Source: CBDFMG01 sp965221205 [NCBI: bacterium]
GTDB lineage: Bacteria; SM23-31
NCBI GenBank assembly: GCA_965221205.1
Contig: OZ244870.1
Location: 1,674,001 to 1,738,000 of the forward strand
Reading direction: 5' to 3'
Length of the DNA: 64,000 nt
The notes under the pieces were generated by a model. That model was not told the origin of the DNA, ran no database searches, and was given only the letters and a program-made list of their open reading frames with translations. Positions within the stretch are counted from its first letter, which is position 1; each line of letters opens with the position of its first letter. Shown here piece by piece: positions 3,645 through 58,385 of this stretch. Made by a program: the position numbers and the translations under genes.

Positions 3645-3683
3645 ACGAATTTGAGGAGAAATTAAGTTCGACTAACGCTAAAA

Positions 3684-3962: not shown

Positions 3963-4005
3963 CTTTCATCAATCTGTAGTATAGTATTAACGAAGATGAA
4001 ACTAC

Positions 4006-39806: not shown

Positions 39807-39814
39807 GCCAGATT

Positions 39815-41683: not shown

Positions 41684-41695
41684 GAATCCACAGGA

Positions 41696-41849
41696 TCATG
41701 CCAGTACCGGAGCGTACTTCGACCGCCACCGGTAGAACGTCTGCTGCGTAATCTCATGTTTTCCGGCGGAGGTCCTGGTTCTTGGCTCCTGCCTCGGATT
41801 CCTTCAGAATCGCAATAATCTGTTCTTCGCTGAATCGCTTCCGCTTCAT
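41696..41849 (-). pseudogene. IS3-family OrfA fragment on minus strand
   Basis: From ATG 41849 (with AGGAGG upstream) the sequence reads MKRKRFSEEQIIAILKESEA followed by QQTFYRWRSKYAPVLA. This is the helix-turn-helix part of an IS3 OrfA of a different subgroup from that at 42742. It stops after 50 residues, where about 90 are normal. Confidence 0.75.
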
Positions 41850-42461: not shown

Positions 42462-42580
42462 GACGAGCGGCGCAGCATAGAGGCTTGGCGGATCCACTAC
42501 AACCGGGTTCGTCCCCACAGTGCATTGGGGTATATCAATCCGGACCGGAGCATTTGCGCCTGGCGGGAGGGACTAGCTGT
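42462..42580 (+). pseudogene. IS3-family OrfB C-terminal fragment
   Basis: The words DERRSIEAWRIHYNRVRPHS and ALGYINP are the C-terminus of an IS3 OrfB integrase (consensus IEAWR.DYN..RPHSALG). The sequence just after it (GTGGGAAAGCCGGTCG ... TTGGAAAATTCTCC) resembles that after the intact orfB at 39545, so both share an IS3 end region. Nothing upstream in frame belongs to the family. Confidence 0.75.
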
Positions 42581-42661
42581 GGGAAAGCCGGTCGCTGTGC
42601 GGCCTTGGAAAATTCTCCGAATTTTCCACTTCCCTCACAACCTCGACGGCAGAGATAAATT

Positions 42662-42980
42662 TGACGTTTCCCCGGAAAACAGATCCATTTCAAAATTGAA
42701 AAAATCGGCGATAGGATGCCTCCAGAGACCGAGGAGGAACGATGCCGAGGAAGCGATACACCGACGCCCAGATAGCGATGGTCGTGCGGGAGTTGGACAA
42801 CGGATCTAAAGCCGGTGAGATGGCCCGGAAGCTGGGTGTGAGCGAGCAAACGATCTACACCTGGAAGAAGCGGTTCGCTGGGATGGGGACGACCGAGATC
42901 CGGCGGTTGCGGCAGTTGGAGGAAGAGAACAGCAGGCTGAAGAAGCTGGTGGCAGATCTGTCGCTGGACAAGGTGATGCT
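42662..42980 (+). mobile_element. Left-hand half of the split IS3-family element (orfA side)
   Basis: It starts with the left terminal repeat TGACGTTTCCCCGG (42662 onward) and carries orfA from 42742. It ends at 42980 inside a Leu codon of orfA. The missing rest of orfA begins exactly at 38680, which together with one shared T gives an uninterrupted orfA. Host-type AT-rich sequence begins at 42981. Confidence 0.75.
42742..42980 (+). CDS. IS3-family OrfA, 3 prime end located at 38680-38706
   Basis: ATG 42742 has GAGGAGG just upstream. Residues 1-80 form the helix-turn-helix (YTDAQIAMVVRELDNGSK, VSEQTIYTWKKRF) and the leucine-zipper-like RRLRQLEEENSRLKKLVADL of IS3 OrfA. The sequence leaves homology after SLDKVM at 42980; the expected next residues LQDVLSKKF are found at 38680-38706. 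In the present sequence the frame runs on into unrelated DNA to 43089. Confidence 0.85.
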
Positions 42981-43028
42981 TACAGATTTTATTGACAAAA
43001 AAGCACCAATAACCGGAAATTGTTATTT

Positions 43029-43982
43029 TCATTGCAATCCGAGAAAATGTGCCGGATTGGTCTTGCACATTTGGCCGATCTCTTCCTGAGTAAATCCTTG
43101 TTCTTTGAGCAGGTGAATAAAATAGATCATCCCATCGGTATGAAGAGGATTCATCTCCTGCCCCAAATCGGTTGAAATAATTGCGTTTTCTGTTCCCACA
43201 GAACGAATATGTGAAACGATCATCTCGATCGGAAGGCCTCCATCCGGTTTAGCAATTCCTGTGTCTGCGGGCATCAAAGGATTAAAACAGTATTCCACAT
43301 ACGCTCCGAGACGTGCAGCCTCAATCTGCTGCTCCATTGTCATTCCCACGGCAGGTGACATTGGATGTGTTACGATAATGCGTTCAATGCCCATCGACTT
43401 TGCTTTCTTGATAAGGAGAAGCGACTCTTCTGGACTCGAATGCCCTGTTGCAAGAGCTAAATTAAAACGGGCCATTATTTCAAAAACATCCACTACTTCG
43501 GGCAGGAGTTCACCCTTGCTGCTAATTGGCACAACATTGGAATTTGGTCTCAGTGTTTTTGAATAGTGCTCAGAATCCCATGTCGGCATCCAAACAACGC
43601 GTCCAAACTGGCCAGTCGTCAGTGCCATGTGTTCCACCGATCGAGGATTAATCCCGCCAGCGGTATTGTTCAGAACTATACCTCCATAAACCTCGATACC
43701 TGGAACGGTCTGATTGACAAGATAGGCAACCGAAGCGGTATGAGTAAAGTGGTTCTTAAACAGTAGCGCCCGCATACCATACCGTTGTGCTATGCGTGCC
43801 GATTCGAACGAATCAATAGCCCGTGGACCGCTGTCCGGCATATTATGAACATGCACGTCGATTGCTTCGTTCAACAGCGTACTGGTTTCATTCCAGTTTA
43901 GAGTCTGGGACTTCGCGGGATTTGCTGATAAGCAAACTGATAATGTAAAGGATAACCACACTAAAAAATGCATCTTATTCAT
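43029..43982 (-). CDS. Secreted DUF6282-type metal-dependent hydrolase
   Basis: About 317 residues from ATG 43982, which has GGAGATATA upstream; the frame could begin at 44051 but the extra residues do not fit a signal peptide as well. Residues 1-25 form a signal peptide (MHFLVWLSFTLSVCLSANPA). The amidohydrolase-type barrel has DVHVHNMPD as its first metal motif, FKNHFTHTAS, ALATGHSSPEE, IIVTHPMSP and STDLGQEMNP. These provide His and Asp ligands in the order expected of the amidohydrolase superfamily. The reaction is unknown for DUF6282. A fragment of a second copy lies upstream near 44080. Confidence 0.82.
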   Translation of the reverse strand: MNKMHFLVWLSFTLSVCLSANPAKSQTLNWNETSTLLNEAIDVHVHNMPDSGPRAIDSFESARIAQRYGMRALLFKNHFTHTASVAYLVNQTVPGIEVYGGIVLNNTAGGINPRSVEHMALTTGQFGRVVWMPTWDSEHYSKTLRPNSNVVPISSKGELLPEVVDVFEIMARFNLALATGHSSPEESLLLIKKAKSMGIERIIVTHPMSPAVGMTMEQQIEAARLGAYVEYCFNPLMPADTGIAKPDGGLPIEMIVSHIRSVGTENAIISTDLGQEMNPLHTDGMIYFIHLLKEQGFTQEEIGQMCKTNPAHFLGLQ

Positions 43983-45391: not shown

Positions 45392-46825
45392 ATGCGTAAG
45401 GACGGTATCTTTACCAAAGGGATGCTTATAGTAGTCATGATCATTTTGTCAATGCTATCCACAGAGTTGCTTGTCTATGCACAACCGGGTGTACATACGG
45501 CAAAAACCGGATCAGAAGTTCTCCGTCTGATTCGGAATGAAAAACTTGACCTCATTCTGCCGGGAGCCATGCGCGACAATAATGTGGATATGTGGATCCA
45601 TGTCACCCGTCAGGGAGATCAAGATCCTTTGTTTCCTGAATTTGGATCAACCTCTGGTTATCTGATTTTTACAGATATGGGAGACAGGATAGAACGGGCG
45701 GTTTTTGGTAGAGAAGGAACTGTTGAAAATATTGACATACGCGGTTCTCGAGAAGTCGCTCGAGCATTTAATGGTTATAGTAATAAGCTCGATCCAGGAG
45801 TCTGGGATGAGATTACAGAATTTGTTGAAGAACGTGATCCGAAAACCATTGCAGTGAATACATCAGATTGGCTTGCTATAGCAGATGGGATTTCACACTC
45901 GCAATATGTTAGATTGGAAAAGATATTAGGGCCTAAATATTCTTCGAGAATTGTATCTGCGGAATACCTCATTACCGATTTCAGATCGAGAAGGATTTTA
46001 AGAGAAGTGTCGCTCATGACCAACGCATTGGAAGTACATCGTCAGATTCTTGAACGTTCTCTTTCAAATGAAGTCATCACACCTGGTGTAACGACCCGGC
46101 AGGATGTAGGCTGGTGGGTTAAGGAGGAGTTTTATAAACGGGGTGTAGCGAGAGGATTTAGTAGTGGGGCAGGAATGCCCGGGGTTATCTATTCAGCAGT
46201 TTCAGATGAATCCGAGACTCGATCTCCTGATTATGTACTGCAGCGCGGTGATTTTCTTTCGTATGATAACGGTGTGAGATATCTGGAATACTTTGGAACA
46301 GATTATAAACGTAATGCCTATATTATGAGGGAAGGTGAAACACGTGTTCCCGCAAGTTTACAGCATGCCTACGATCAAGCGATAGCTGCTCAGAAGATCA
46401 TTCGGGAAAATGTGAAAATTGGAAGGACTGCCGGAGAAACCTTGCAGATTCTCATCTCGGCCCTGAAAGAAGCAGACTATATTTACACACCGTTTACCGA
46501 TGAATCTCCGGAAAACTATATGAATGTTCAGGAGAAACTTGCTAATACTGATAAGTCAAGTTTCTCCATTGACCTTCATAGTCAGGGAAATAATGGCGGC
46601 AGCCTTGTTACCGTTGGACCCTCTATGGCAGTTTTCCGGTCAGACCGCGACCATTTGATGATTCAAGAGAATCATCTTTTTTCATTGGAATACGTGATCT
46701 GTACGAATCTTCCGGAACGACCGGGACGGCCGATTGTTATCAATATTGAAGGTAATCATGTTATTTCCAGCAGGGGAATAGAGTTTCTCCATCCGCCAAA
46801 CGAACGGATATTATTGATACATTAA
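45392..46825 (+). CDS. Secreted M24-peptidase-like protein lacking the metal His
   Basis: The 477-residue protein has GGAGGTG before its ATG and a signal peptide (residues 1-30, ending VYA). It aligns over its whole length with the M24 protein at 32501: EVLRLIRNEKLDLILPGAM, VDMWIHVTRQGD, EYLITDFRSRRILREV and VITPGVTTRQDVGWW. Of the five metal ligands, Asp292 (YDNGV), Asp304 (GTDYKRNAYI), Glu433 (FSLEYV) and Glu453 (NIEGN) are kept, but the LGHDVG His is replaced by a Gly in NNGGSLVTVGPS. It is probably a weak or inactive enzyme, or a peptide-binding protein. A good terminator follows. Confidence 0.85.
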   Translation: MRKDGIFTKGMLIVVMIILSMLSTELLVYAQPGVHTAKTGSEVLRLIRNEKLDLILPGAMRDNNVDMWIHVTRQGDQDPLFPEFGSTSGYLIFTDMGDRIERAVFGREGTVENIDIRGSREVARAFNGYSNKLDPGVWDEITEFVEERDPKTIAVNTSDWLAIADGISHSQYVRLEKILGPKYSSRIVSAEYLITDFRSRRILREVSLMTNALEVHRQILERSLSNEVITPGVTTRQDVGWWVKEEFYKRGVARGFSSGAGMPGVIYSAVSDESETRSPDYVLQRGDFLSYDNGVRYLEYFGTDYKRNAYIMREGETRVPASLQHAYDQAIAAQKIIRENVKIGRTAGETLQILISALKEADYIYTPFTDESPENYMNVQEKLANTDKSSFSIDLHSQGNNGGSLVTVGPSMAVFRSDRDHLMIQENHLFSLEYVICTNLPERPGRPIVINIEGNHVISSRGIEFLHPPNERILLIH

Positions 46826-47088: not shown

Positions 47089-47176
47089 ATGCTCAATTTG
47101 AAATTTAACAAGAAAGATAATGAACCTTTAGAGTCGGAATTTGGTTCACGTGTCTCCGATTTGCGGATAAGAGCAA
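47089..47176 (+). pseudogene. 5 prime remnant of a Kir-type K+ channel gene
   Basis: ATG 47089 opens a frame reading KDNEPLESEFGSRVSDLRIR. FGSRVS and the charged lead are typical of the cytoplasmic N-terminus of prokaryotic inward-rectifier channels, which precedes NRDGSFNV. The frame is cut at about 47176, where the GC-rich defence island begins with ATGAACGC. The matching C-terminal domain is found on the other side of the island at 58386. The short length makes this assignment tentative on its own; the 3 prime part is what makes it credible. Confidence 0.5.
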
Positions 47177-47437
47177 ATGAACGCTGACTTCACAGGACGC
47201 AGTCTCTTCATCGTTGACAACAGCGTCACCGGCTGGACCGGGCAACGTTACCTCGAAGAGTGGGCCGACATCACTCGGGCCTTTGATGTTGCAACGGGAT
47301 TTTTCGAGATCGGCGCGCTGCTCGCCCTGGATGGGAAATGGCAAGGCATAGAAAAGATCCGCGTGCTGATGGGTGCCGAAACAACTCACCGCACGCGCAA
47401 GGCGCTCCTCTCCTCCGTACGCACCCAACAGAATTGA
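47177..47437 (+). pseudogene. 5 prime duplicate of the PLD-helicase gene
   Basis: The first 84 residues (SLFIVDNSVTGWTGQRYLEE ... RVLMGAETTHRTRKALL) are near-copies of the first residues of the protein at 51352. DNA similarity starts exactly at the ATG and ends at CGTACGCACCCA, about 258 bases in both copies. Differences are mostly at third codon positions, so the copy was under selection after separation or came from a related system. It stops after QQN and encodes no catalytic part. Confidence 0.88.
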
Positions 47438-47581
47438 CTTTTCAAAACAGAAAGTGGGTGGAAAGTGGGGAATCCGATAAGCGAGTCTAAATCGCTTATG
47501 ATCCAGGAAATGCCGCAGCAATCGTATGCAGTATATGCCAAAATCATTGCCTGGAATGGCAGATAGCGAGATCTAAATTTA

Positions 47582-48853
47582 ATGCTGTACTTGTCACGCG
47601 TACAACTGTACAACGTCCGATGCTTTGACACGCTAGATATTGCACTTGGCGGTCCAGGCATCGAACCAGCGGGTTGGAACCTCATTTTGGGTGATAACGC
47701 GACAGGCAAATCGACACTTCTTCGAAGTATCGCTATGGGTCTGTGTGATGAGGCAAGCGCAGCCGGTTTACTTAAGGAATCGGACGAAGGGTACATCCGG
47801 CGAGGGGAAACCAAGGCGACTATTGTGATTTCGTTGCACGATCCAAACGAGTCCGGCAAGGAGTTTCGTATCACGACCGAAGTGCACCGTGACATAAAAG
47901 GGCGAGGGATCTTCGCCGACAGGGTGCGGCAGGATACCAACCCTCCGGACACCGGGTTCCCTTGGGAGACCTTATTTGTTTCTGGGTACGGCGCTGGTCG
48001 AGGGGTGACAGGAACGGGAGATATTTCCTCTTATTCCGCGATCGACGCTGTTTACAACATGTTTAACTACAGCGAAGGACTTCAGAATCCTGAACTGGTC
48101 ATTCTGCGGCTCATTGCGCACACTTCCGATAACCGGCTGATGGAGCGTCAGATCTGTCAAGTCTTGCAAACAGCTATGGGGATTGAGGAGATCAAGCTTA
48201 CGAGCGAAGGAATCCGAGTTTCCGGCCCATGGGGTGAGAAAATGCCCTTAAGGGACCTCGCTGATGGTTACAGATCCTCGTTCTTGTGGCTGACCGATCT
48301 AATTGGGTGGGCTTTAGCCTTTGATCCTACGCGAAAAAGTACTGAGGGGATTTGCGGAATCGTGTTGATTGATGAAATTGAGCAACACCTGCACGCCCGA
48401 TGGCAGCGGACAGCAATAGACGATCTCCGAAAGCTCTTTCCTAATGTTCAGTTCATTGCTAGCACGCACTCGCCTCTCGTCGCATCCAGCATTGGGCCAC
48501 ATACTGACGGATTATATGTACTTGAACCTTATGGAGCGGAGGGCGTGAAGGCTACTGAACACGAGTTCATGCAAGGTTGGAGGATGGATCAAGTGCTCGC
48601 TTCCCGTGCCTTCAAATACCAGATCGAAGTTGATCCCTCCACGGAGAAAATGTTGCGCAAAGTCTCTTCCCTTGGTGATGCAAAGGACCGCACTCCGGAG
48701 GAGGAACAGTTATTTCAAGAAATCAAAAATAAACTGAAACACGCGTTCCTCACTGGAACTTCGCCTATCGAACGCATCGCCGAAATCGAGGCAGAAAAAG
48801 AGTTGATAAAACGACTTGATAAACTAACAGAACGGCACTCTAGGGAGCAATGA
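47582..48853 (+). CDS. AAA/SMC-like ATPase of a Septu-type (PtuA-like) defence pair
   Basis: The 423-residue protein has the ABC/SMC-type ATPase layout of OLD-like and PtuA proteins. SRVQLYNVRCFDTLDI is the usual N-terminal strand, Walker A is GDNATGKST at 37-45, a signature-like LADGYRS segment lies near 230, and Walker B is VLIDEIEQHLH at 261-271, followed by FIASTHSPLVASS with the switch His. It overlaps the next gene, an HNH nuclease, by ATGA. ATPase plus HNH is the composition of the Septu defence system and of retron-associated PtuAB. Whether it senses phage proteins or DNA cannot be told. It is the first gene of a six-gene operon. Confidence 0.85.
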   Translation: MLYLSRVQLYNVRCFDTLDIALGGPGIEPAGWNLILGDNATGKSTLLRSIAMGLCDEASAAGLLKESDEGYIRRGETKATIVISLHDPNESGKEFRITTEVHRDIKGRGIFADRVRQDTNPPDTGFPWETLFVSGYGAGRGVTGTGDISSYSAIDAVYNMFNYSEGLQNPELVILRLIAHTSDNRLMERQICQVLQTAMGIEEIKLTSEGIRVSGPWGEKMPLRDLADGYRSSFLWLTDLIGWALAFDPTRKSTEGICGIVLIDEIEQHLHARWQRTAIDDLRKLFPNVQFIASTHSPLVASSIGPHTDGLYVLEPYGAEGVKATEHEFMQGWRMDQVLASRAFKYQIEVDPSTEKMLRKVSSLGDAKDRTPEEEQLFQEIKNKLKHAFLTGTSPIERIAEIEAEKELIKRLDKLTERHSREQ

Positions 48854-49569
48854 AGTTGATCCAGATAAAGCGATCTCGTTGTCCGCCCATACTGAAAAAT
48901 GCCGCCGCAGATAGCGACAAATATCGCCATTCCGAAGTGGTTAGTGAACTGTGGAGGATGCAGGCTAGGAAGTGTTGCTATTGCGAACAAAAGATTCCTG
49001 AAAAAGGTCACGCGAAGGCGGTCGAACATTTTGCACCGAAGTCAGTATTTAATGCTCAGCGCAACCACTGGCCTAACTTGCTGTTAGCGTGCTCTCAATG
49101 CAACGGCAAGAAAGCTGATCAATTTCCAGTAATGCTTACTGACAACCCAAACGAGGTCAAGCTCATCTATGTCAAGAAATGTAGTAAGGAGGTCCCAGCA
49201 CTAATTGACCCATCATCAAAGAAGATAAATCCCGAAGCTCACCTTGACTACCGCGTGAATCTCGAAGATGGCAGCCTTTCTGGTCAAATATTCCCGCGCG
49301 CCGGCAGTCTCCAGGGAAAAGAGACGATTTCAGTGATTGGGTTGGATCAGGCCTTTTTTCATAGGCTTCGCCGAGCCCACTTCTTGACCCTTGTGAGCAC
49401 GTACGTAGCCTTGCTGGGGGCGAACGATCAAGACGGGCGACAGGCGGCACTGCTGCAGTTCAATAATCTTATTTCCCAGGGTGGAGTATTTGCAGGTTTG
49501 GCGAGAGAATTCACCCGAAGATTGAGACTCGACGTCGAATACGGACTGTGCATCCCCACCATTGCATAG
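48850..49569 (+). CDS. HNH endonuclease of a Septu-type (PtuB-like) defence pair
   Basis: The 239-residue protein contains an HNH nuclease with zinc-binding cysteines: C42-x2-C45 (KCCYCEQK), the catalytic EH at 59-60 (AVEHFAPKS), Asn76 in HWPNLLLACSQC and a second pair C81-x2-C84 followed by NGKK. This arrangement is the one found in PtuB and in other ATPase-partnered HNH proteins. The C-terminal half is helical with no motif I know. Its start codon overlaps the ATPase stop (ATGA), so the two are translationally coupled, consistent with a complex. It is undamaged. Confidence 0.88.
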   Translation: MKLIQIKRSRCPPILKNAAADSDKYRHSEVVSELWRMQARKCCYCEQKIPEKGHAKAVEHFAPKSVFNAQRNHWPNLLLACSQCNGKKADQFPVMLTDNPNEVKLIYVKKCSKEVPALIDPSSKKINPEAHLDYRVNLEDGSLSGQIFPRAGSLQGKETISVIGLDQAFFHRLRRAHFLTLVSTYVALLGANDQDGRQAALLQFNNLISQGGVFAGLAREFTRRLRLDVEYGLCIPTIA

Positions 49570-49584
49570 GCTGCGAGGGATTGG

Positions 49585-49974
49585 ATGAGCGAAACGGATG
49601 CGTCGATCTACTATGGCCTCGAATTGATTCTGGACCTTCATGAATGTAATGCTGCGCGATTCACTCGACGTGACATCACGACATTCTGTAGAGAGCTTTG
49701 CGATTTGATCGACATGGAGAGTTGTGATCTACATTTCTGGGATGACGTTGGCGTGCCTGAGAATGAGCGGCAGAGAAATCCCAAAACGAAAGGGACGAGC
49801 GCGGTTCAATTCATTCTTACGAGTACTATCGTAATTCACACTCTTGACTTGATGAAGGCCGCCTACATCAATGTTTTTTCCTGCAAAGAATTCGATACGG
49901 ATGAAGCTGCTCAGTTCACCGCCAAATGGTTTGGCTCGACCGACTGGACAGCAAACGTGGTAGTTCGCCGCTAA
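49585..49974 (+). CDS. S-adenosylmethionine-decarboxylase-like (SpeD-like) protein
   Basis: The 129-residue protein has the short-chain SpeD fold pattern: GLELILDLHECNAARF at the N-terminus and FILTSTIVIHTLDLMKAAYI, then NVFSC. Aligning with bacterial SpeD, Ser80 occupies the position of the serine that becomes the pyruvoyl cofactor, His85 and Cys100 fall at the same spacings (5 and 15) as the processing His and catalytic Cys. The residue before the serine is Thr79 instead of the usual Glu. The frame has GAGGGA upstream and is 14 bases before the DUF3326 gene. A polyamine role in a defence operon would be unusual. It could also have a different decarboxylase or sensing function. Confidence 0.78.
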   Translation: MSETDASIYYGLELILDLHECNAARFTRRDITTFCRELCDLIDMESCDLHFWDDVGVPENERQRNPKTKGTSAVQFILTSTIVIHTLDLMKAAYINVFSCKEFDTDEAAQFTAKWFGSTDWTANVVVRR

Positions 49975-49987
49975 AGGAAAGGAGCAT

Positions 49988-51355
49988 ATGGCGGACGTTA
50001 TTGAGCGACAGTGTAGTGTGTTTGTGCCTGACGAAGCGGTCGGACTGGTTGCTCATCTGGAACGGGCATGTTTGGAGTCTTTAGCGGACGAGGTTCCCGT
50101 TCGGTTCGTTGTGAGTTCCAGCTCACTTCACAGTTATCAATGCGAACTTGCCGTCGTCAAGCGTAAAGTGCTGCGTAAGAGAATCCCTATTGCGTCGATT
50201 TTTGAATTCAGGCAACGAGCAACTCAGCGCTCAGAGAAGTGGAATGTTGTGTTCATAGTGCCAACGGGAATCGGTGCTGAAATTGGCGGCCATGCTGGGG
50301 ATGCGGGGCCGGTGGCGCGGATGCTAGGCGAGATCTCTGACACGCTTGTTTTGCATCCGAACGTGGTGAACGCTTCCGATCTTAATGAGATGCCTTCGAA
50401 TGCACTCTATGTCGAGGGTAGTGTCCTAACACGCCTTCTGATGGGTACCGTTGGCTTGGAACGAGTGCGGTCAAATCGCGTCTTGGTAGTCATTGACGAT
50501 CACAAAGATGAGATCTTCGTCAATGCGGCTGTAAATGCTGTTAACAGTGCGAGAGCAGCATACGGATTGTCGTGTTCAGAAGTCGTATGCCTCGATCCGC
50601 CATTACGAGTGAAGACCGAATATTCTCCATCTGGAAGAGCGGCTGGTCAGGTCGAACGGATTGAAGGCTTATGCGAACTCCTTGATGAGCGGAACGGATC
50701 GTACGATGCCGTGGCAATCTCATCCGTCATCGATGTGCCAGACGTCTATCACCAAGGATATTTTGATGCGGCTGGTGCGATGGTGAACCCCTGGGGGGGA
50801 GTGGAGGCAATGTTGACTCACACCCTGTCCAGCTTGTATAACGTTCCGACCGCGCACTCTCCGATGTTTGAATCTAGAGAAATTGCGAATATGGATCCTG
50901 GAATCGTTGATCCCCGCATGGCAGCCGAAGCTGTTTCGGCAACATTCCTGCAATGTACGCTAAAGGGTCTCCTGCGGAGTCCAAGAATCGTTACGGATGA
51001 GAATGCGATGAACCAGTCCGGTATCTTTACAGCAGCTGATGTGTCCTGTCTTGTGCTTCCGTACGGTTGTTTAGGGCTTCCGACAATTGCCGCTCTTGAG
51101 CAGAACATTCCTGTTATTGCCGTGTCGGAGAACTCGAATCTGATGCGAAATAATCTTTCGGAGCTTCCATGGAGATCGGGACAATTTCACCGAGTCCGTA
51201 ACTATTGGGAGGCTGCCGGTGTTATAGCAGCCATGCGGGCTGGAATCGATCCAGCGGCCGTGCGACGTCCACTCTCAGCGACCCAAGTTTCGCGTTTCAA
51301 GGCAGAACCTACCTCAAAAGGGCACGTTTGCGCTCCAGCCGAGAGGACTGAATGA
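49988..51355 (+). CDS. DUF3326 family protein
   Basis: The 455-residue protein carries DUF3326 from about residue 80: VVFIVPTGIGAEIGGHAGDA, ARMLGEISDTLVLHPNVVNA, MPSNALYVEGSVLTRLL, then EVVCLDPPL, EYSPSGRAAG, NPWGGVEAMLTHTLSSLYNV and ALEQNIPVIAVSENSNLM. DUF3326 is found in cyanobacteria and others without a known biochemical role. The N-terminal 75 residues (VFVPDEAVGLVAHLERACLE ...) are an extra domain not seen in the basic family. AAAGGAG precedes its ATG, and its stop overlaps the PLD-helicase start as ATGA. Its two neighbours in the operon, SpeD-like and helicase, suggest it works in the same locus. Confidence 0.8.
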   Translation: MADVIERQCSVFVPDEAVGLVAHLERACLESLADEVPVRFVVSSSSLHSYQCELAVVKRKVLRKRIPIASIFEFRQRATQRSEKWNVVFIVPTGIGAEIGGHAGDAGPVARMLGEISDTLVLHPNVVNASDLNEMPSNALYVEGSVLTRLLMGTVGLERVRSNRVLVVIDDHKDEIFVNAAVNAVNSARAAYGLSCSEVVCLDPPLRVKTEYSPSGRAAGQVERIEGLCELLDERNGSYDAVAISSVIDVPDVYHQGYFDAAGAMVNPWGGVEAMLTHTLSSLYNVPTAHSPMFESREIANMDPGIVDPRMAAEAVSATFLQCTLKGLLRSPRIVTDENAMNQSGIFTAADVSCLVLPYGCLGLPTIAALEQNIPVIAVSENSNLMRNNLSELPWRSGQFHRVRNYWEAAGVIAAMRAGIDPAAVRRPLSATQVSRFKAEPTSKGHVCAPAERTE

Positions 51356-54300
51356 ACGCTGACTCCAAAGGCCGAGGTCTCTTCATCGTCGACAACAGCG
51401 TCACCGGCTGGACCGGGCTGCGTTACCTCGAAGAGTGGGCCGACATCACTCGAGCTTTCGACGTTGCGACCGGATTCTTCGAGATCGGCGCGTTGCTCGC
51501 CCTGGACGGGAAATGGCAAAATCTTGAGAAGATCCGCGTGCTTATGGGTGCCGAAACAACTCGCCGCACACGCAAAGCACTCCTCGACTCCGTACGCACC
51601 CAGGCAGCAGAAGCCCTTGATCGGAGCATCGAGTCTGACAAGCAAGATAATCCCTTCTTGCACGGCGTGCCAGCCGTTCTCGAAGGGCTACGCAGCGGTA
51701 AGATCGAATGCCGGATCTACGACAAGGGCAAGTTTCACGCAAAGACCTACATCACCCATGCCAAGCTCGAAGTCGTTGGTTCGCAGGCATTGGTGGGGTC
51801 CAGCAACTTCACGAAACCAGGACTCACGGAGAACATTGAACTCAACGTGCAGATCCAAAGCGCGCGCGAAGTGGCCCAGCTTCAGGATTGGTTTGAGGCA
51901 CATTGGAACCAAGCCAAGGACGTAACCGAGGAGATGATTGACACTGTCGAGCGGCATACACGCATTTACTCGCCCTTCGAGGTGTATGCGAAAGCGCTGC
52001 AGGAGTTCTTCCGAGGCCACGAACTGACCGCCACCGAGTGGGATGAGACGAGGTCGAAGATGTTTCACCAACTCGACCGCTACCAACAGGAAGCGTATTG
52101 GGCTCTCATGAAGATTGTCCGTCAGCATGGTGGTGCATTCCTCTGCGATGGCGTGGGCCTTGGCAAGACCTTCGTCGGCCTGATGCTCATAGAGCGTCTG
52201 GTTCTCCACGAAGGTAGGCGGGTCGTGCTGTTCGCCCCCAAGGCTGCGAAAGAGGGTGTTTGGGAACCCCACCTGCGGGATTGGTTGCCCCACATCGGCG
52301 GCGTCGGTGGCGGCGCTGACTTCAGCAACTTGGCCGTCTTCAGTCACACCGATCTGCACAGGAAAGGCGAATTTCCAGAGCGGTTCCGGCGCATTGCCGA
52401 GTTGGCCGACGTCGTGATCATCGACGAAGCGCACCACTTCCGGAACCCGGGCACGCGAGGCAGCGATAACGGCAAGGAGCCGTCCCGCTACTACCGCCTG
52501 TACGATTTGCTCGACAACGCGGTGAACGCGGTGCGTCCCAAGACCCTGTTTATGCTTACTGCAACACCAATCAACAACCGGCTGAGCGACTTCCGCCACA
52601 TGGCCGAGTTGTTCACACGCCGGGACGAGGCCTATTTTGCCCGGACGCTGGGCGTCAACAACCTGCGCGCCCATGTTAATCAGATGGAGAAGGTCTTTCA
52701 CCAGCGCGTGGGTCACACTGTGACCGATGCCGCCGAGCAGATGAGCGAGGCCCAGGAAATCCTCGCCGGTGACGCGATCTTTCGCCATCTTGTGGTTCAG
52801 CGCAGCCGCTCCTACGCACGTGAGAGCCAGATCCGTGAGACCGGCGAAGCGGCGGCGTTCCCCGAACGCAAGGCCCCGCAGGTGGCCGCCTATTCCATCC
52901 GCAAGACGTATGGGCGGCTTCTGGAACTGTTCGAGAAGGCTTTCACGCGGGATAACCCTCTATTCACGCTTCCCATGTACTACCCGCTCCACTGGTACAA
53001 AGGCCCAGAAGACATTGACTCCTTTGAACAGAACCGGCAGCAGCAAGTTGTGGGCCTGATCCGCACAAATTTCCTCAAGCGCTTCGAGAGTTCCGTCGCG
53101 TCCTTTGAACTCTCCTGCGTCCGCCTCCTGAAGAAGCTGCTAGCTTTCGTCGAAGTCCACAGCATAACCGATGGCGAGAAGCGGCGGCTAGAGCGGTGGA
53201 AGACGCAAAACACAGAGTTTCTCGGCTGCGCGACTCGACGCCAGCTCGACCTATCGGGCGAGGATGACGACGAATCCGAGGACGATGACATCGTGCCTGT
53301 GGAAATGCTCGACGCGGTCGAGCGACTCGATCGCGAGGAGTATGAAGTTGAGGAGATGATCTCCGAGACCTTCCTGGACCTCGATCAGATCGTGCAGTTT
53401 CTCAATGAGACCCGGAAGTTCGAGCCCAGGCACGACGACAAACTCCAGAAGCTCATCCGCCTGCTCAAGTCCAAGGAGCTTGCGGGCCAGAAAGTCCTCA
53501 TTTTCACAGAATTCGCTCACACAGCGCGTTACGTGAAACGCCAACTCGACGATGCCGGCATCGAAGGCGTGACTCAAATGGACAGCGCCTCCAAAAGCAA
53601 CCGGGCCGAGGTGATCCAGCGTTTCTCACCCTTCTACAATGGCAGTTCCTCGGCTGCGCTTGCGGATGCCGGCCGCAAAGAGATCCGCGTCCTCATCTCC
53701 ACCGATCTCCTCTCAGAAGGCCTGAACCTCCAGGACGCCTCGCGGATGATCAACTACGACATTCACTGGAACCCGGTGCGGCTGATGCAGCGCATCGGGC
53801 GTGTTGACCGGCGCATGAACCCGGAGGTCGAGAAGCGGCTCGTCGCCGAACACCCGAAAGTCGCAGCCTCCCGCGGCAAGGTGAGCTTCTGGAACTTCCT
53901 GCCCCCCGATGAGTTGAACGCAATCCTCACGCTCTACACGAGGGTGACGCAGAAAATTCTATTAATCTCGAAGACGCTCGGGATCGAAGGCAGAAAACTC
54001 CTGGCGCCCGAAGACGACTTCAACGCTCTCAGAGAGTTCAACCACGCCTACGAGGGCACGCGCACGGCGGTCGAAGACATGCACCTCGAATACCAGGCCT
54101 TGCTGCAGACCGATCCCGAGCTGGAGTCGCGCCTCAAACGCTTGCCCGGTGCTACTTTCAGCGGTCGGAAACGGGTGGCCAAAGGCATACGCGGAGTTTT
54201 CTTCTGCTATGCGCTTCCGGCCCTCGACAAGGAAGCGGGCAAATTTACTGAGGACGCGGGGTTCACGCGCTGGTACCTCTACGACCTCGCCCGAGACGTG

Positions 54301-54504
54301 ATCCTCGAAGAGCCGGGCGAGATCGTCGCGAGCATCCGCTCCAAGCCCAAGACGCCTCGCAAGTGCATTACGGAGGAGAAGACGCTCATCGAAATCCGCG
54401 CGAAGATCGAGAGGCACATCAAGAACACTTATCTCAAGCGAATTGACGCGTCCGTGGGTGTGAAGCCGTCGCTCAAGTGCTGGATGGAAGTGAACGAGGT
54501 CTGA
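51352..54504 (+). CDS. PLD-nuclease-domain SNF2/DEAH helicase
   Basis: The 1050-residue protein joins an N-terminal phospholipase-D-like domain (to about residue 190; HxK half-motif in KFHAKTYI at about 126-133 with GSSNFTKPGL) to an SF2 helicase of SNF2 type. Walker A is CDGVGLGKTFVGL near 263, the DEAH box is VIIDEAHHFRNPG near 357, motif III is MLTATPINNR, and motif VI is QRIGRVDRR near 812. An acidic low-complexity run DDDESEDDD lies between the lobes near 640. Helicases like this pair with an N6-adenine methyltransferase, here the next gene, in restriction systems of DISARM-like or split type ISP design. It is complete, but its 5 prime end is also duplicated at 47177. Confidence 0.88.
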   Translation: MNADSKGRGLFIVDNSVTGWTGLRYLEEWADITRAFDVATGFFEIGALLALDGKWQNLEKIRVLMGAETTRRTRKALLDSVRTQAAEALDRSIESDKQDNPFLHGVPAVLEGLRSGKIECRIYDKGKFHAKTYITHAKLEVVGSQALVGSSNFTKPGLTENIELNVQIQSAREVAQLQDWFEAHWNQAKDVTEEMIDTVERHTRIYSPFEVYAKALQEFFRGHELTATEWDETRSKMFHQLDRYQQEAYWALMKIVRQHGGAFLCDGVGLGKTFVGLMLIERLVLHEGRRVVLFAPKAAKEGVWEPHLRDWLPHIGGVGGGADFSNLAVFSHTDLHRKGEFPERFRRIAELADVVIIDEAHHFRNPGTRGSDNGKEPSRYYRLYDLLDNAVNAVRPKTLFMLTATPINNRLSDFRHMAELFTRRDEAYFARTLGVNNLRAHVNQMEKVFHQRVGHTVTDAAEQMSEAQEILAGDAIFRHLVVQRSRSYARESQIRETGEAAAFPERKAPQVAAYSIRKTYGRLLELFEKAFTRDNPLFTLPMYYPLHWYKGPEDIDSFEQNRQQQVVGLIRTNFLKRFESSVASFELSCVRLLKKLLAFVEVHSITDGEKRRLERWKTQNTEFLGCATRRQLDLSGEDDDESEDDDIVPVEMLDAVERLDREEYEVEEMISETFLDLDQIVQFLNETRKFEPRHDDKLQKLIRLLKSKELAGQKVLIFTEFAHTARYVKRQLDDAGIEGVTQMDSASKSNRAEVIQRFSPFYNGSSSAALADAGRKEIRVLISTDLLSEGLNLQDASRMINYDIHWNPVRLMQRIGRVDRRMNPEVEKRLVAEHPKVAASRGKVSFWNFLPPDELNAILTLYTRVTQKILLISKTLGIEGRKLLAPEDDFNALREFNHAYEGTRTAVEDMHLEYQALLQTDPELESRLKRLPGATFSGRKRVAKGIRGVFFCYALPALDKEAGKFTEDAGFTRWYLYDLARDVILEEPGEIVASIRSKPKTPRKCITEEKTLIEIRAKIERHIKNTYLKRIDASVGVKPSLKCWMEVNEV

Positions 54505-54508
54505 CCCA

Positions 54509-57500
54509 ATGCCGACCAACCACCGCGCCGCACTCGCGAATATCAAGCGCTTCGATCAGTTGATCGCCTATCTGCGCGACGAGATGGCGTGGCCGATCGA
54601 GGGTGACGACTTTGACGAAATGACCTTTGAGTACACTGCGGAGGAACTCGGCATCGACGTAAGAAACACGGCCAAGATTCAAGAAATCAAGCGCCTGCGC
54701 CCTCTCGCGTCGAACCAGCCTTGGGGCATCTTCTTTGTCAAGTTCGAGCCCAAGCAACTCCCCGTCGTGGCATTGCGCCGCATCCTGGGTCAGGTGGTGG
54801 TCAAAAAACGCGCCTCGGCCAACAGTTCCGAGCGACAAGCGTGGGCGGCGGAAGACCTCCTCTTCGTCTCCAATTACGGTGAGGGAGACACACGCCAAAT
54901 CAGCTTCGCACACTTTGCAACGCCCAACGATGGCCGTGACCTGCCCACCCTCAAAGTGCTTGGCTGGGACAACCGCGATACGGCGCTGCATCTTGACGCC
55001 GTTACCAGGGAACTGACCGAACATCTAGCGTGGCCGGACGACGAAGACAACGCTGACGCGTGGCGCGAGCAGTGGCGCTCCGCATTCACGCTTCGCCACC
55101 GGGAGGTCGTCACCACCTCACGTGACCTCTCTATGCGCCTAGCCGGGTTGGCCCGTGCGATCCGTGACCGCATCCAAACCTCACTCGCCATCGAAACCCA
55201 GAACGGGCGTATCACTAAGCTCATGAAGGCATTTCAGGAAGCGCTCGTGCATGACCTGGATGCTGACGCCTTTGCCGATATGTATGCCCAGACCATCGCC
55301 TACGGCCTGCTGTCCGCGCGCATCGCCGATCCCCGCAAAAAGACGGCCGATGACTTCGCCGGCCACATGCGTACGAACCCATTCCTCCGTGACCTGATGG
55401 AGACCTTTCTCCAGGTCGGCGGGCGCCGCGCCAAGGCTACCGGCGAGGGGATCGATTTCGACGAACTGGGTGTTTCCGAGGTCGTGGAACTACTCGACAA
55501 CGCAAACATGGAAGCTGTCATCCGCGATTTCGGCGACCGGAACCCGCGGGAAGACCCGGTCACTCACTTCTACGAATTGTTCCTGAAGGAGTACGACGCC
55601 GAGAAGCGCATGCAGCGCGGTGTTTTCTACACACCGCGTCCGGTGGTCTCCTACATCGTCCGGTCGGTGGACGAATTGCTGCGCACGGAGTTCGGACTCG
55701 CTGATGGCCTCGCGGATATCACCACCTGGGGGGAGATGGTGCAGCGCTGCAAGAACCTAAAGATCCCCGACGGTGTCTCACCCGACCAGGATTTCGTCCA
55801 GATCCTCGACCCTGCCACAGGTACCGGCACTTTCCTGGTCGAGGCCATCGACGTGATCCACGGCACGCTCCTCAAGAAGTGGCGAGCGCAGGGTTGCCGT
55901 GACAGCGAAATGGAAGCGCTCTGGAACGAGTATGTGCCCAGGCACCTGCTCCCGCGCCTGCACGGCTACGAACTTCTAATGGCCCCGTACACTATCGCGC
56001 ACCTCAAGATCGGTCTCAAGCTCTACGAGACCGGCTACCGCTTCGGCAGCGGCGAGCGGGCACGGATCTTCTTGACGAACGCGCTGGAACCAGCGAGCAT
56101 CACGCAGATGACGCTGGACTTCCTGCCGGCGCTGGCGCATGAGGCCGAGGCGGTGAACGAGATCAAGCGGAAGCGGCGGTTCACGGTGGTGATCGGAAAT
56201 CCACCTTATTCAGGCCTTTCTTCGAACATCGGCCCGTGGATCGACGGCCTCCTCAAGGGCCGGCTGCCCGATGGTACCGCGACCGCGAGCTACTACCACG
56301 TTGACGGCGAGCCGCTCGGTGAGCGCAAGGTCTGGTTACAGGACGACTACGTCAAGTTCATGAGGCTGTCTCAATGGTTGCTCGATGGCACTGGTGTCGG
56401 CGTCCACGGCTACATCAGCAACCACGGTTACCTCGACAACCCCACGTTTCGCGGGATGCGCTTCTGCCTGATGCGAGCCTTCGACCGCATCGATGTCCTC
56501 GATTTGCATGGGAACCTAAAGAAGAGGGAAGTAGCACCAGATGGAGGTAGGGATGTAAACGTCTTCGACATACAGCAGGGCGTTGCAATCGGTCTGTTCG
56601 CCAAGCTGGTAGACCCCGACGCTGTGATCGATCTCTGTCCAGTTCGGCACGTCGATGCCTACGGGGACCGGCAGACCAAGTATGCGCGCCTGCTCGCGGA
56701 AACCGCAGGCTCAACAGCGTGGAAGGAACTCAACGCAACAGAACCGTTCTACCTATTCACGCCGTTCGACAGCAGCGAAGTAGGTGACTACTACAAATGG
56801 AAACGGATAAACGAGGTGATGCCTGTAAGTGTCACGGGTATCGTGACCGCTCGCGATCATTTCGTCATCGACTTCGAGCGCGCCCCACTACTTGAGCGGA
56901 TGGCCGTCTTGCGGGACGGATCAGTACCCGATGACATCATCCGACGCAAGTACTTCTCCGGTAAGGGCTCAAAGAAGTATCTGCTAGGTGACTCTCGTGG
57001 ATGGAAACTCTCCGAAGCACGGCGAAGGATCCAGAGCGACGCTGAATGGGACAGGCGGTGTACGACGATTTACTACCGACCCTTCGATGCGCGGCAGATT
57101 TACTACGTACCGTGGATGGTTGACTGGCCACGCACGGAAGCCATGCCGCACATGCTGGCAGGGCAGAATCTCGCGCTGATTACCTCCCGTATGACGAAAG
57201 GTGAAGTCTTTAGGCACGCTCAGGTGACTCGGAACATCGCTGAAGTCATCTGCATGTCGCCTAAGACTTCAAACAACGGGTTCGTCTTTCCAATCTATCT
57301 CTACCCCGGCGTAGGCAAGGCGGATCAACGGATGTTAAATCCATGGGTCCCCGGAAAAAGAGGCCGACGACCGAACCTCGATCCGGCCTTTGTGCTTCTA
57401 CTTGAACAGTCCACTAGTTTGACGTTTGTCTCCGATCAGCGCAGTGGCCGGGAGGAAAGCTTTGGCCCCGAATGTGTGCTGGGGTACATCTACGCGGTCC

Positions 57501-58027
57501 TCAACTCTCCTGAATACCGCCGACGATTCAAGCCAATGCTCAGGATTGACTTCCCGCGCATCCCCGGGCCTGCTAGCCGGGACCTTTTCCAAGATATTAG
57601 TCACCGCGGGCGAGAACTCGTTGCCCTGCACTTGCTGGAATCTAGCACGTTAGACAAGCCCATCACTAATCTAACCGGACCAGTAAATAACGAGGTTGAG
57701 AAAGTCTCCTACTCCGACGAGACTGTCTGGCTCGACAAGGCGCAGACGTACGGTTTCAACGGTGTCCCCGAAGAGGTATGGAACTTCCACATCGGAGGCT
57801 ACCAGGTCTGCCACAAGTGGCTCAAGGACCGGAAGGGCCGCACGCTCTCGGACGATCACGTCGCCCACTACCAGAAGATCGTCGTCGCCCTGAACGAGAC
57901 CATCCGCATCATGGTCGAGATCGACGAGGTCATCGAGGCCCACGGTGGCTGGCCCGACGCGTTCCAGACCGGAGAGGCACCGAACCCGGCGACGATGAGT
58001 ACGGGGAAGCGCAGCGCGTCCACATGA
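54509..58027 (+). CDS. N6-adenine DNA methyltransferase with C-terminal target-recognition region
   Basis: The 1172-residue protein starts four bases after the helicase stop. After an alpha-helical N-terminus, the methyltransferase domain shows GVFYTPRPVVSYIVRSVDEL near 372, the SAM motif ILDPATGTGTFLVEAIDVIH near 433-452 and the catalytic IGNPPYSG near 563, the NPPY of N6-adenine enzymes. The rest (from about 740, DSSEVGDYYKW and onward) resembles target-recognition domains of type ISP (LlaBIII-like) enzymes. In those, nuclease, helicase, methyltransferase and recognition domains form one chain; here they are split into two proteins. It should methylate one strand of an asymmetric site in the host DNA. 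Confidence 0.9.
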   Translation: MPTNHRAALANIKRFDQLIAYLRDEMAWPIEGDDFDEMTFEYTAEELGIDVRNTAKIQEIKRLRPLASNQPWGIFFVKFEPKQLPVVALRRILGQVVVKKRASANSSERQAWAAEDLLFVSNYGEGDTRQISFAHFATPNDGRDLPTLKVLGWDNRDTALHLDAVTRELTEHLAWPDDEDNADAWREQWRSAFTLRHREVVTTSRDLSMRLAGLARAIRDRIQTSLAIETQNGRITKLMKAFQEALVHDLDADAFADMYAQTIAYGLLSARIADPRKKTADDFAGHMRTNPFLRDLMETFLQVGGRRAKATGEGIDFDELGVSEVVELLDNANMEAVIRDFGDRNPREDPVTHFYELFLKEYDAEKRMQRGVFYTPRPVVSYIVRSVDELLRTEFGLADGLADITTWGEMVQRCKNLKIPDGVSPDQDFVQILDPATGTGTFLVEAIDVIHGTLLKKWRAQGCRDSEMEALWNEYVPRHLLPRLHGYELLMAPYTIAHLKIGLKLYETGYRFGSGERARIFLTNALEPASITQMTLDFLPALAHEAEAVNEIKRKRRFTVVIGNPPYSGLSSNIGPWIDGLLKGRLPDGTATASYYHVDGEPLGERKVWLQDDYVKFMRLSQWLLDGTGVGVHGYISNHGYLDNPTFRGMRFCLMRAFDRIDVLDLHGNLKKREVAPDGGRDVNVFDIQQGVAIGLFAKLVDPDAVIDLCPVRHVDAYGDRQTKYARLLAETAGSTAWKELNATEPFYLFTPFDSSEVGDYYKWKRINEVMPVSVTGIVTARDHFVIDFERAPLLERMAVLRDGSVPDDIIRRKYFSGKGSKKYLLGDSRGWKLSEARRRIQSDAEWDRRCTTIYYRPFDARQIYYVPWMVDWPRTEAMPHMLAGQNLALITSRMTKGEVFRHAQVTRNIAEVICMSPKTSNNGFVFPIYLYPGVGKADQRMLNPWVPGKRGRRPNLDPAFVLLLEQSTSLTFVSDQRSGREESFGPECVLGYIYAVLNSPEYRRRFKPMLRIDFPRIPGPASRDLFQDISHRGRELVALHLLESSTLDKPITNLTGPVNNEVEKVSYSDETVWLDKAQTYGFNGVPEEVWNFHIGGYQVCHKWLKDRKGRTLSDDHVAHYQKIVVALNETIRIMVEIDEVIEAHGGWPDAFQTGEAPNPATMSTGKRSAST

Positions 58028-58060
58028 CAGAATGGTAGCGTTGAATGTCCGATCTTCACG

Positions 58061-58385
58061 ATGGCAAACCAGAAGCAGCATCACTATGTCTCGAGGTTCT
58101 ATTTGGATCGATTTGCGGATCCGGTAGGCCACGTTTGGGCGTACGACAAGTCAACCGATCTGGTGTTCTGTGGACGCCCGGAGACGCTCGGAAGGGAAAG
58201 CGGCTTCTACGAAGCTCCGTTTCTTCAAGGCACAGCAGTAGAACCGGAGTTCCTGGAACGAGAACTTGCTAGGCTTGAATCGGAAGCGGCAAGAATTACA
58301 TCCTCTTGGATCAGGCTAATCGAAGCTGGCGGCAGGATCGTCACGATCTCGGAGATCGACCGGAAGAACGATCGCCACTTACATC
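58061..58385 (+). pseudogene. DUF4238 protein, truncated at island edge
   Basis: The start MANQKQHHYVSRFYLDRFAD with VGHVWAYDKSTDLVFC and FLERELARLESEAARI is the beginning of a DUF4238 protein, a family common beside defence genes and of unknown function. The sequence leaves the family at about 58380, where Kir-channel sequence takes over in a different frame. It is therefore about 105 of an expected 270-300 residues. It lies 34 bases after the methyltransferase gene and was probably the last gene of the island. Confidence 0.82.

What the first reader, a model, noticed from the sequence alone, without database searches (positions are those of the whole stretch)
49585..51355. SpeD-like plus DUF3326 pair embedded in a defence operon: candidate undescribed module
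Seen: a short AdoMet-decarboxylase-like gene and a DUF3326 gene lie 14 bases apart between a Septu-like ATPase/HNH pair and a PLD-helicase/methyltransferase pair. All six genes are intact, on one strand, with ATGA overlaps or gaps below 20 bases, so they are probably one transcript. Known: Septu (PtuAB) and helicase-methyltransferase restriction are defence systems; SpeD makes decarboxylated AdoMet for polyamines; DUF3326 has no known function. Inference: the pair could make or sense a small molecule (AdoMet-derived) that controls the nucleases or competes with methylation. I know of no described defence system with this composition, but I cannot search.
Basis: partly seen in the sequence, partly recalled or inferred. 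Interest (0 to 1): 0.8.

Follow-up and report, generated by a model that had tools for sequence, protein, structure and literature searches.

The report
Decarboxylase-DUF3326 module with swappable defence effectors
A small decarboxylase and a protein of unknown function (DUF3326) form a conserved two-gene unit that bacteria repeatedly place behind interchangeable defence genes and that phages carry on its own, which suggests that they make a small molecule controlling a defence switch.

Summary
In detail: 47582-58027 carries PtuA-, PtuB-, SpeD-like, DUF3326, PLD-helicase and methyltransferase genes, one strand, gaps of 15 bases or less. The SpeD-like/DUF3326 pair recurs in 48 of 52 IMG/VR loci with DUF3326 and 23 of 80 genome loci. 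In 50 other genome loci an NspC-like PLP decarboxylase takes SpeD's place; single cases elsewhere have an Orn/Lys/Arg- or phosphatidylserine-type decarboxylase. DUF3326 is thus tied to decarboxylation, probably not to AdoMet. PtuAB lies directly upstream in 12 of 80 loci, with no hit elsewhere in them; in two related genomes with a shared upstream flank, a membrane protein stands where the other has PtuAB. Phage contigs carry the pair without PtuA. The helicase-methyltransferase part looks separate.

Best reading: the pair makes a small amine that controls a neighbouring toxic effector, and phages carry the pair to subvert this or for polyamine supply. Gene linkage is shown; the molecule and the control are inferred. 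In the held library no paper has both PtuA and decarboxylase, and two mention DUF3326.

The parts
47582..48853 (+). PtuA-like ATPase (effector subunit); Walker A GDNATGKST and Walker B-like LIDE read by eye
   Evidence: PADLOC PtuA E 2.9e-53; Pfam AAA_21; NCBIfam PtuA 114 bits, below its cut-off of 500
48850..49569 (+). PtuB-like HNH nuclease (effector subunit), 4-base overlap with PtuA
   Evidence: PADLOC PtuB E 5.2e-27; Pfam HNH
49585..49974 (+). SpeD-like pyruvoyl decarboxylase (S80, H85, C100), member of a clade that is next to or near DUF3326 in 72 of 75 rows
   Evidence: Pfam PF02675 54 bits; residues; clade SH-aLRT 98
49988..51355 (+). DUF3326 protein, well-predicted fold without a clear solved relative; probable enzyme (inferred)
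   Evidence: PF11805 E 3.2e-95; AlphaFold2 mean pLDDT 92.2; no PDB match at E <= 0.001
47176..47427 (+). Truncated copy of about the first 84 codons of the helicase gene, 88% identical to 51351-51602; remnant at the left edge of the four-gene cassette
51352..54504 (+). PLD-SNF2 helicase; neighbour, judged not part of the module
   Evidence: Pfam/PADLOC; relatives in 2 of 80 genome loci
54509..58027 (+). ISP/type IIG-like methyltransferase; neighbour, judged not part of the module
   Evidence: PADLOC REase_MTase_IIG E 2.8e-206; no relative in the other loci scanned

Best explanation
The unit is an effector-plus-metabolite defence cassette. The decarboxylase and DUF3326 make a small amine from an amino-acid-like precursor; the amine, or its loss during infection, sets the activity of the effector encoded just upstream. 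In the window the effector is PtuAB, which would cleave RNA or DNA when released; elsewhere a helical membrane protein sits in the same slot. The likeliest sign is inhibition: the amine keeps the effector off (as RT plus msDNA does for PtuAB in retron-Eco7), and phage-induced change of host metabolism releases it. Phages that carry the pair alone would keep the amine made and the effector silent, or use the amine themselves. Shown: the gene pair, its coupling to decarboxylases of four families, PtuAB directly upstream wherever it was found in the 80 loci, an effector exchange between two related loci, phage carriage without PtuA. Inferred: that DUF3326 is an enzyme, the amine product, the control of the effector, its sign, the defence role. 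A guess at the chemistry: DUF3326 builds a carboxylated amine (as carboxyspermidine dehydrogenase does) which the decarboxylase finishes.
For: Pair conserved: 48 of 52 IMG/VR loci. A decarboxylase next to DUF3326 in 73 of 80 genome loci (23 SpeD-like, 50 NspC-like, none with both); four of the other seven have DUF3326 within about 200 bases of a contig end. Families exchange: NspC-like (TIGR01047, 252-318 bits in four tested), Orn/Lys/Arg type in L182 (PF01276, E 5.4e-50), PS decarboxylase type in phage contig L003 (PF02666, E 2.9e-26); at least 14 SpeD/NspC changes on the DUF3326 tree. Effector slot: all 12 PtuA, 12 PtuB and 5 membrane-protein (TM19) hits in 80 loci lie directly upstream, same strand. 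Exchange: L086 (TM19) and L091 (PtuAB) share 3 kb of upstream flank (82% DNA) and DUF3326 (88.5% protein), with unlike genes between. Less selected sample: of 26 DUF3326-positive genomes among 1372, 18 have an adjacent decarboxylase and 9 an adjacent PtuA or PtuB. SpeD catalytic residues kept in 72 of 72. PtuAB elsewhere is a toxin neutralised by a separate module (PMC11555353, passages). No PtuA, TM19 or MfnB hit in the viral loci.
Against: No biochemical or phage data. PtuA divergence does not follow DUF3326 divergence (Mantel -0.30, p 0.98; PtuB 0.27, p 0.03; 13 loci), so the two do not travel as one old unit. Most DUF3326 loci lack PtuAB: 68 of 80 and 17 of 26. The downstream flanks of L086 and L091 are not shared, so the common site is shown on one side only. 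Fifteen of 80 sit near a GSP-synthase-like gene, often with PspA and DUF2170, a context that others read as envelope stress (PMC11237479, passages); 9 have an AMP-ligase-like and 4 a glutamine-synthetase-like gene near by. Eight of the 26 genomes have no recognised decarboxylase next to DUF3326 (one is a contig-end fragment); three of them have a short DUF3326 in what looks like a housekeeping setting. The 80 loci were picked for similarity to the window, and the PtuA/PtuB profiles were built from those loci. DUF3326 has no clear fold relative, so even its being an enzyme is inferred. The viral loci hold one weak PtuB-like hit (L032, E 2e-7).
Confidence: 0.45

Rival explanations
1. Polyamine-like metabolism only. 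The pair makes a polyamine or polyamine conjugate useful for growth, membranes or phage replication; PtuAB is an independent Septu system that settles upstream because both live in islands.
For: NspC-like, Orn/Lys/Arg-type and SpeD-like partners all belong to polyamine enzyme families; GSP-synthase and PspA contexts (PMC11237479); phage SpeD homologues with ornithine or arginine decarboxylase activity are published (PMC9992855, passages).
Against: PtuAB position is fixed: 12 of 12 directly upstream, no hit elsewhere in the 80 loci; the effector exchange between L086 and L091; patchy occurrence, 26 of 1372 genomes, unlike core metabolism; 4 of 12 draft genomes with SpeD-DUF3326 have no spermidine-synthase family match.
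Confidence: 0.3
2. Nucleic-acid marking. The amine made by the pair is attached to tRNA or DNA and protects it from PtuAB (self versus non-self); phages carry the pair to protect their own.
For: PtuAB cleaves tRNA-Tyr or DNA in published systems (PMC11555353, PMC13096335, passages); phage carriage; DNA methyltransferase next door in the window.
Against: No other gene is widely shared around the viral pairs: the next neighbour families occur in at most 7 loci each, at varied offsets; a membrane protein can take the PtuAB slot, which marking does not explain.
Confidence: 0.1
3. Protein partner, not chemistry. SpeD-like and DUF3326 proteins bind PtuAB as inhibitor or sensor; their catalysis is irrelevant.
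For: Tight operon with overlaps; PtuAB in retron-Eco7 is neutralised by RT plus msDNA.
Against: Ser/His/Cys kept in 72 of 72 distinct SpeD rows; decarboxylases of four families stand in for each other; 28 invariant columns in 52 DUF3326 rows, many polar.
Confidence: 0.07
4. One reading: pair plus PtuAB plus helicase plus methyltransferase act as one.
For: Same strand, overlaps or gaps under 20 bases across all six; helicase relatives near the module in L097 (opposite strand) and L124.
Against: Methyltransferase relatives in none and helicase relatives in 2 of 80 genome loci; GC 0.49-0.52 over 47-51 kb against 0.55-0.61 over 51-58 kb; a truncated helicase copy at the left edge shows that the locus was assembled.
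Confidence: 0.05

Closest known systems
Septu (PtuAB)
   Same: PtuA-like ATPase plus PtuB-like HNH, recognised by PADLOC
   Different: Followed by a decarboxylase and DUF3326; no held paper has both PtuA and decarboxylase as whole words
Retron type I-A (Eco7/Ec78)
   Same: PtuAB as toxic effector under a separate control module (PMC11555353, passages)
   Different: No reverse transcriptase among the eight proteins scanned; the control genes look metabolic
Neofunctionalised SpeD (SpeDC ornithine and SpeDA arginine decarboxylases; PMC10407285, PMC9992855)
   Same: Small SpeD without the AdoMetDC proline; Gln75 and Thr79 resemble the SpeDC signature; phage carriage
   Different: A clade of its own against 11 reference rows (75 rows on one side, SH-aLRT 98), a longer segment around invariant W52 and no Phe after His85, where the SpeDC-like viral rows have one, and a DUF3326 partner; 'DUF' does not occur in the main text of PMC10407285
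Carboxy(nor)spermidine dehydrogenase plus NspC decarboxylase pathway
   Same: NspC-like partner (TIGR01047) next to DUF3326 in 50 of 80 genome loci
   Different: The four NspC-like proteins tested stay below the equivalog cut-off of 409 bits; DUF3326 is not a recognised dehydrogenase
PspA / YjfC-type (GSP synthase) envelope operons (PMC11237479)
   Same: In 15 of 80 loci a GSP-synthase-like gene, often with PspA and DUF2170, lies near the decarboxylase-DUF3326 pair
   Different: DUF3326 has 0 occurrences in that paper's main text; the window's scanned neighbours include none of these genes

Membership tests
AdoMet decarboxylase (SpeD) | Match to Pfam AdoMet_dc above cut-off | tested here: met
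   54 bits, cut-off 25
AdoMet decarboxylase (SpeD) | Pyruvoyl Ser plus catalytic His and Cys | tested here: met
   S80, H85, C100; 72 of 72 distinct linked rows
AdoMet decarboxylase (SpeD) | Match to the AdoMetDC equivalog TIGR03330 | tested here: not met
   22.2 bits, cut-off 75.65
AdoMet decarboxylase (SpeD) | Proline that distinguishes true AdoMetDC | tested here: not met
   D88 in the window; P in 5 of 72 distinct rows. The criterion is in PMC10407285 section 7; I placed the column by eye against canonical SpeD sequences of G002 and G003, as the figure is not held
SpeDC ornithine decarboxylase | Gln, Thr, Phe, Tyr signature | tested here: inconclusive
   Gln75 (64 of 72) and Thr79 (65 of 72) present, Tyr94 plausible, no Phe after His85; positions inferred from text
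Septu | PtuA-like ATPase followed by PtuB-like HNH | tested here: met
   PADLOC hits
Septu | NCBIfam PtuA/PtuB equivalog scores (retron Ec78 models) | tested here: not met
   113.9 of 500 and 58.3 of 150 bits
Septu | Anti-phage activity | not testable with these tools
   needs plaque assays
Retron type I-A | Reverse transcriptase and msDNA next to PtuAB | tested here: not met
   No RT among the eight proteins scanned, 47177-58423; msDNA not searched
DUF3326 (PF11805) | Profile match over the whole domain | tested here: met
   319 bits, profile 2-336 of 337
Known PDB fold for DUF3326 | Fold match that covers the protein | tested here: inconclusive
   Foldseek best E 7e-3; VIA-align Z up to 9.5 to lumazine synthase over residues 161-332 (rmsd 3.8, 128 aligned), close to the background that the tool states

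The most novel reading that the evidence does not exclude
A new class of signal-coupled immunity: a decarboxylase-DUF3326 pair makes a dedicated amine metabolite that gates interchangeable toxic effectors (PtuAB nuclease, a helical membrane protein, perhaps cyclase-domain proteins), and many phages carry the metabolite-making pair alone as a metabolic antitoxin that keeps those effectors shut.
Probability: 0.35. Interest if true: 0.92.

Novelty: new variant of a known kind. Interest (0 to 1): 0.78.

Why it matters
It gives DUF3326, a Pfam family of unknown function, a testable job (partner of a decarboxylase), shows decarboxylases of four families replacing each other in one gene pair, and points to a defence cassette whose control part is metabolic and is also carried by phages. 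If right, it adds an amine metabolite to immune signals that are so far mostly nucleotides (recalled), and it predicts a new kind of phage counter-measure: carrying the antidote pathway.

Tried and rejected
DUF3326 in the phage and plasmid record collections: no match. SpeD-like in those collections: 9 phage and 3 plasmid records, all below 40% identity. Solved structures by sequence: nothing meaningful for either gene. Fold search of the DUF3326 model: no match at E <= 0.001; VIA hits to lumazine synthase and GT-B glycosyltransferases judged to be common arrangements. Fold search of TM19 (pLDDT 74, six rows): best E 0.45, nothing. PADLOC on two TM19, three cyclase-domain genes and an HNH gene of L178: no match. 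Idea of one co-inherited PtuAB-SpeD-DUF3326 unit: not supported, PtuA distances do not correlate with DUF3326. Idea of a simple recent duplication for the helicase fragment: the copies are 12% apart. Promoter and terminator scans: not above shuffles. tRNA genes in the window: none. PLD-helicase on plasmids: none at E 1e-50. Paper searches: the rows listed were swamped by the prefix 'septu'; searches gave nothing on this pair in the rows listed (12 of 155, 8 of 11 and 10 of 87).

The draws were centred on five genomes already known to carry the family, and these five are among the 26; without them it is 21 of 1367 genomes, 13 with a decarboxylase and 5 with PtuA or PtuB adjacent. Several of the 21 are also among the 80. 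Four genome loci with DUF3326 near the contig end (L087, L107, L143, L156) and duplicate viral loci were left out of the tree; duplicate viral loci also out, but not of the 88 rows (72 distinct). The 52 viral loci hold 47 distinct DUF3326 sequences. Gene calls in my scripts are greedy ORF picks; cluster names come from one representative scanned per cluster; flanks are at most 8-10 kb and many contigs are shorter. Adjacency in the 26 genomes was read by eye off the listings. Genomes are drafts, so absences there are soft.

Full report
What is in the window. Six intact genes run on the plus strand from 47582 to 58027: PtuA-like, PtuB-like, SpeD-like, DUF3326, PLD-SNF2 helicase and an ISP/type-IIG-like methyltransferase. 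Overlaps or gaps are 4 bases (overlap), 15, 13, 4 (overlap) and 4. No whole genome is held for the window, so the host is unknown to me.

The pair is conserved. A first scan of IMG/VR with the window's DUF3326 gave one contig, with the same pair overlapping by 4 bases between other ORFs. A scan with the two-sequence alignment gave 52 loci, holding 47 distinct DUF3326 sequences. In 48 of the 52 a SpeD-like ORF lies on the same strand: 42 within 70 bases upstream, one directly downstream (L023), five upstream with 471-1753 bases between (L015, L022, L029, L033, L051); 4 have none. The next most widespread neighbour families occur in at most 7 loci each, at varied offsets. Seven neighbours from seven DUF3326 loci match PHROGs of head, packaging or tail function (portal, terminase, head, tail J); an eighth neighbour, from a SpeD-only locus (L065), matches mainly a family of unknown function. 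So the pair is a self-contained insert in phage-type contigs.

The decarboxylase partner is exchangeable. Among the 80 best genome loci 23 have the SpeD-like gene and 50 a PLP decarboxylase of the NspC type next to DUF3326 (48 by clustering, 45 upstream and 3 downstream; L123 and L144 by BLAST); none has both. Of the remaining seven, L087, L107, L143 and L156 have DUF3326 within about 200 bases of a contig end; L141, L153 and L159 show no decarboxylase. Four NspC-like proteins tested score 252-318 bits against TIGR01047, far above the other families listed but under its cut-off of 409. In L182 an Orn/Lys/Arg-type decarboxylase overlaps DUF3326; in phage contig L003 a phosphatidylserine-decarboxylase-type gene overlaps it. 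On a DUF3326 tree of 136 rows the SpeD/NspC label changes at least 14 times (100 shuffles: mean 38.6, minimum 29), so exchange happened often while the label stays clustered. The tree is a quick one with 49 of 132 inner branches weakly supported; starred branches alone force 7 changes for the SpeD label and 4 for the NspC label. The plain reading is that DUF3326 needs the product, or supplies the substrate, of an amino-acid-type decarboxylation.

The SpeD-like protein is probably not an AdoMet decarboxylase. It keeps Ser80, His85 and Cys100 (72 of 72 distinct rows) but lacks the proline described as marking true AdoMetDC (5 of 72 have it), and it has Gln75 (64 of 72) and Thr79 (65 of 72), which resemble the ornithine-decarboxylase (SpeDC) signature, while the Phe is missing (criteria from section 7 of PMC10407285; I placed the columns myself). 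The 75 rows that are not references form one side of a branch with SH-aLRT 98 against 11 reference rows, and 72 of them are linked to DUF3326 (few columns, so only this split is used). In 12 draft genomes with the pair, 9 hold a single AdoMet_dc match and 4 have no spermidine-synthase family match. No activity is known, so AdoMet is not excluded.

Link to defence genes. With HMMs built from the neighbour clusters, all 12 PtuA and all 12 PtuB hits (E <= 1e-10) in the 80 loci lie directly upstream of the decarboxylase-DUF3326 pair on its strand, and none lies elsewhere in the loci: 8 loci of the SpeD type, 4 of the NspC type. Five loci carry in the same slot a helical membrane protein (here TM19) for which Pfam and PADLOC gave no family in the two members scanned. 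In two Neomarinimicrobiota genomes 3 kb of upstream flank (82% identical) and DUF3326 (88.5%) are shared, but L086 has TM19 and L091 has PtuAB between them; the downstream flanks are not alike. One Phycisphaerales genome has both kinds, each with an MfnB-like gene or fragment upstream (L082; L186, where the DUF3326 ORF is only 193 aa; MfnB family PF04476). Cyclase-domain genes lie next to the pair or to DUF3326 in L085, L119 (just under the Pfam cut-off), L153 and L178, and by similarity in L160. In the less selected draws 26 of 1372 genomes hold DUF3326 (2 of 247, 7 of 294, 7 of 289, 7 of 245, 3 of 297; the five centre genomes included); of the 26, 18 have an adjacent decarboxylase and 9 have PtuA or PtuB adjacent, one of these a PtuB fragment (read).

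Results against. PtuA identities to the window are 32-42% and PtuB 21-29% while DUF3326 identities are 49-61%, and PtuA and DUF3326 distances do not correlate (Mantel -0.30, p 0.98; PtuB 0.27, p 0.03; 13 loci). So PtuAB was recruited repeatedly or evolves by its own rules. This weakens a single ancestral cassette, but repeated recruitment to the same slot is itself a sign of a functional link. Most DUF3326 loci have no PtuAB (68 of 80; 17 of 26). Fifteen of 80 have a GSP-synthase-like gene near by, often with PspA and DUF2170, a setting that others link to polyamines and membranes (PMC11237479, passages). Three Planctomycetota loci have a short DUF3326 without a decarboxylase; in two of them a small separate protein just upstream looks like the family's N-terminal domain (by eye).

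The window itself is a mosaic. GC is 0.49-0.52 over 47-51 kb and 0.55-0.61 over 51-58 kb, with 0.37-0.43 in the 3 kb on the left and 4 kb on the right; further left, 38-43 kb, it is 0.50-0.56. About the first 84 codons of the helicase gene exist twice, 88% identical; the left copy, at 47176-47427, is truncated and ends 154 bases before PtuA. At E <= 1e-20, methyltransferase relatives were found in none, and helicase relatives in two (L097, L124), of the 80 genome loci. I therefore read PtuAB-SpeD-DUF3326 as one cassette joined to a helicase-methyltransferase system.

How it most likely works. In retron-Eco7, PtuA and PtuB together are toxic, deplete tRNA-Tyr and are neutralised by RT plus msDNA (PMC11555353, abstract and passages); a stand-alone Septu also cleaves tRNA-Tyr (PMC13096335, passages), and another is cited there as cutting nicked DNA. 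PtuAB is thus an effector that can be put under different control modules. Here the module behind it looks metabolic: decarboxylase plus DUF3326, sometimes with MfnB. The simplest account is that they make an amine that holds the effector off, and that infection disturbs this. Phages with the pair but without PtuA fit an antidote role; they also fit plain polyamine supply, which is known for phage SpeD homologues (PMC9992855, passages). I put 0.45 on effector control by the pair's product and 0.3 on metabolism alone.

Novelty. In the held library DUF3326 occurs in two papers; the one opened lists it in a cyanobacterial gene cluster with a ferredoxin and DUF650 (one passage), the other was seen as a search listing only. 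No paper holds both PtuA and decarboxylase as whole words. The library lacks preprints and most subscription journals, so this shows absence only there.

Noticed in passing
window 47176-47427: Truncated 252-bp copy of the helicase gene start, 88% identical to 51351-51602, at the left edge of the PtuAB-SpeD-DUF3326 cassette.
   Followed up: yes
window 12862-18721: An 814-aa protein and a 752-aa DEAD-type helicase that look, by eye, like a further defence or repair locus (TerB-like and Lhr/DrmA-like); no family scan run.
   Followed up: no
window 38727-43089: IS3-like transposase pieces and a short integrase-like N-terminal fragment at 41291-41683, by eye; the region looks like the edge of an island.
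   Followed up: no
window 32501-33826, 45392-46825, 60216-61625, 63224-63988: Several paralogues of one peptidase-like family (M24-like by eye) spread over the window.
   Followed up: no
window 58061-58423: Short DUF4238 protein (120 aa, matches positions 2-94 of a 281-position profile), probably truncated, just after the methyltransferase.
   Followed up: partly
L003:7120-9194: Phage contig in which a phosphatidylserine-decarboxylase-type gene overlaps DUF3326 where SpeD usually stands.
   Followed up: partly
L144:825-5553: One 1126-aa protein joins a Rieske-type oxygenase to an NspC-like decarboxylase, followed by DUF3326, in a Candidatus Paraburkholderia genome.
   Followed up: partly
L048:5467-7320: Phage SpeD-like domain at the end of a 617-aa protein; about 500 N-terminal residues match no Pfam family.
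   Followed up: no
L178:3295-11843: Cyclase-domain gene, SpeD, DUF3326 and an HNH gene in a row near a phage-type integrase; a further ORF at 3295-4011 resembles SIR2 by eye but has no Pfam match.
   Followed up: partly
L203:7777-9131: A short phage-type SpeD-DUF3326 pair in a genome (G1032) that also carries TM19-NspC-DUF3326 elsewhere (L204).
   Followed up: no
L082 6694-7431, L083, L124, L186 (fragment), L091 (fragment), L154 (opposite strand): MfnB-like furan-phosphate synthase genes or fragments beside the effector and pair; might hint that an aldehyde takes part in the chemistry.
   Followed up: partly
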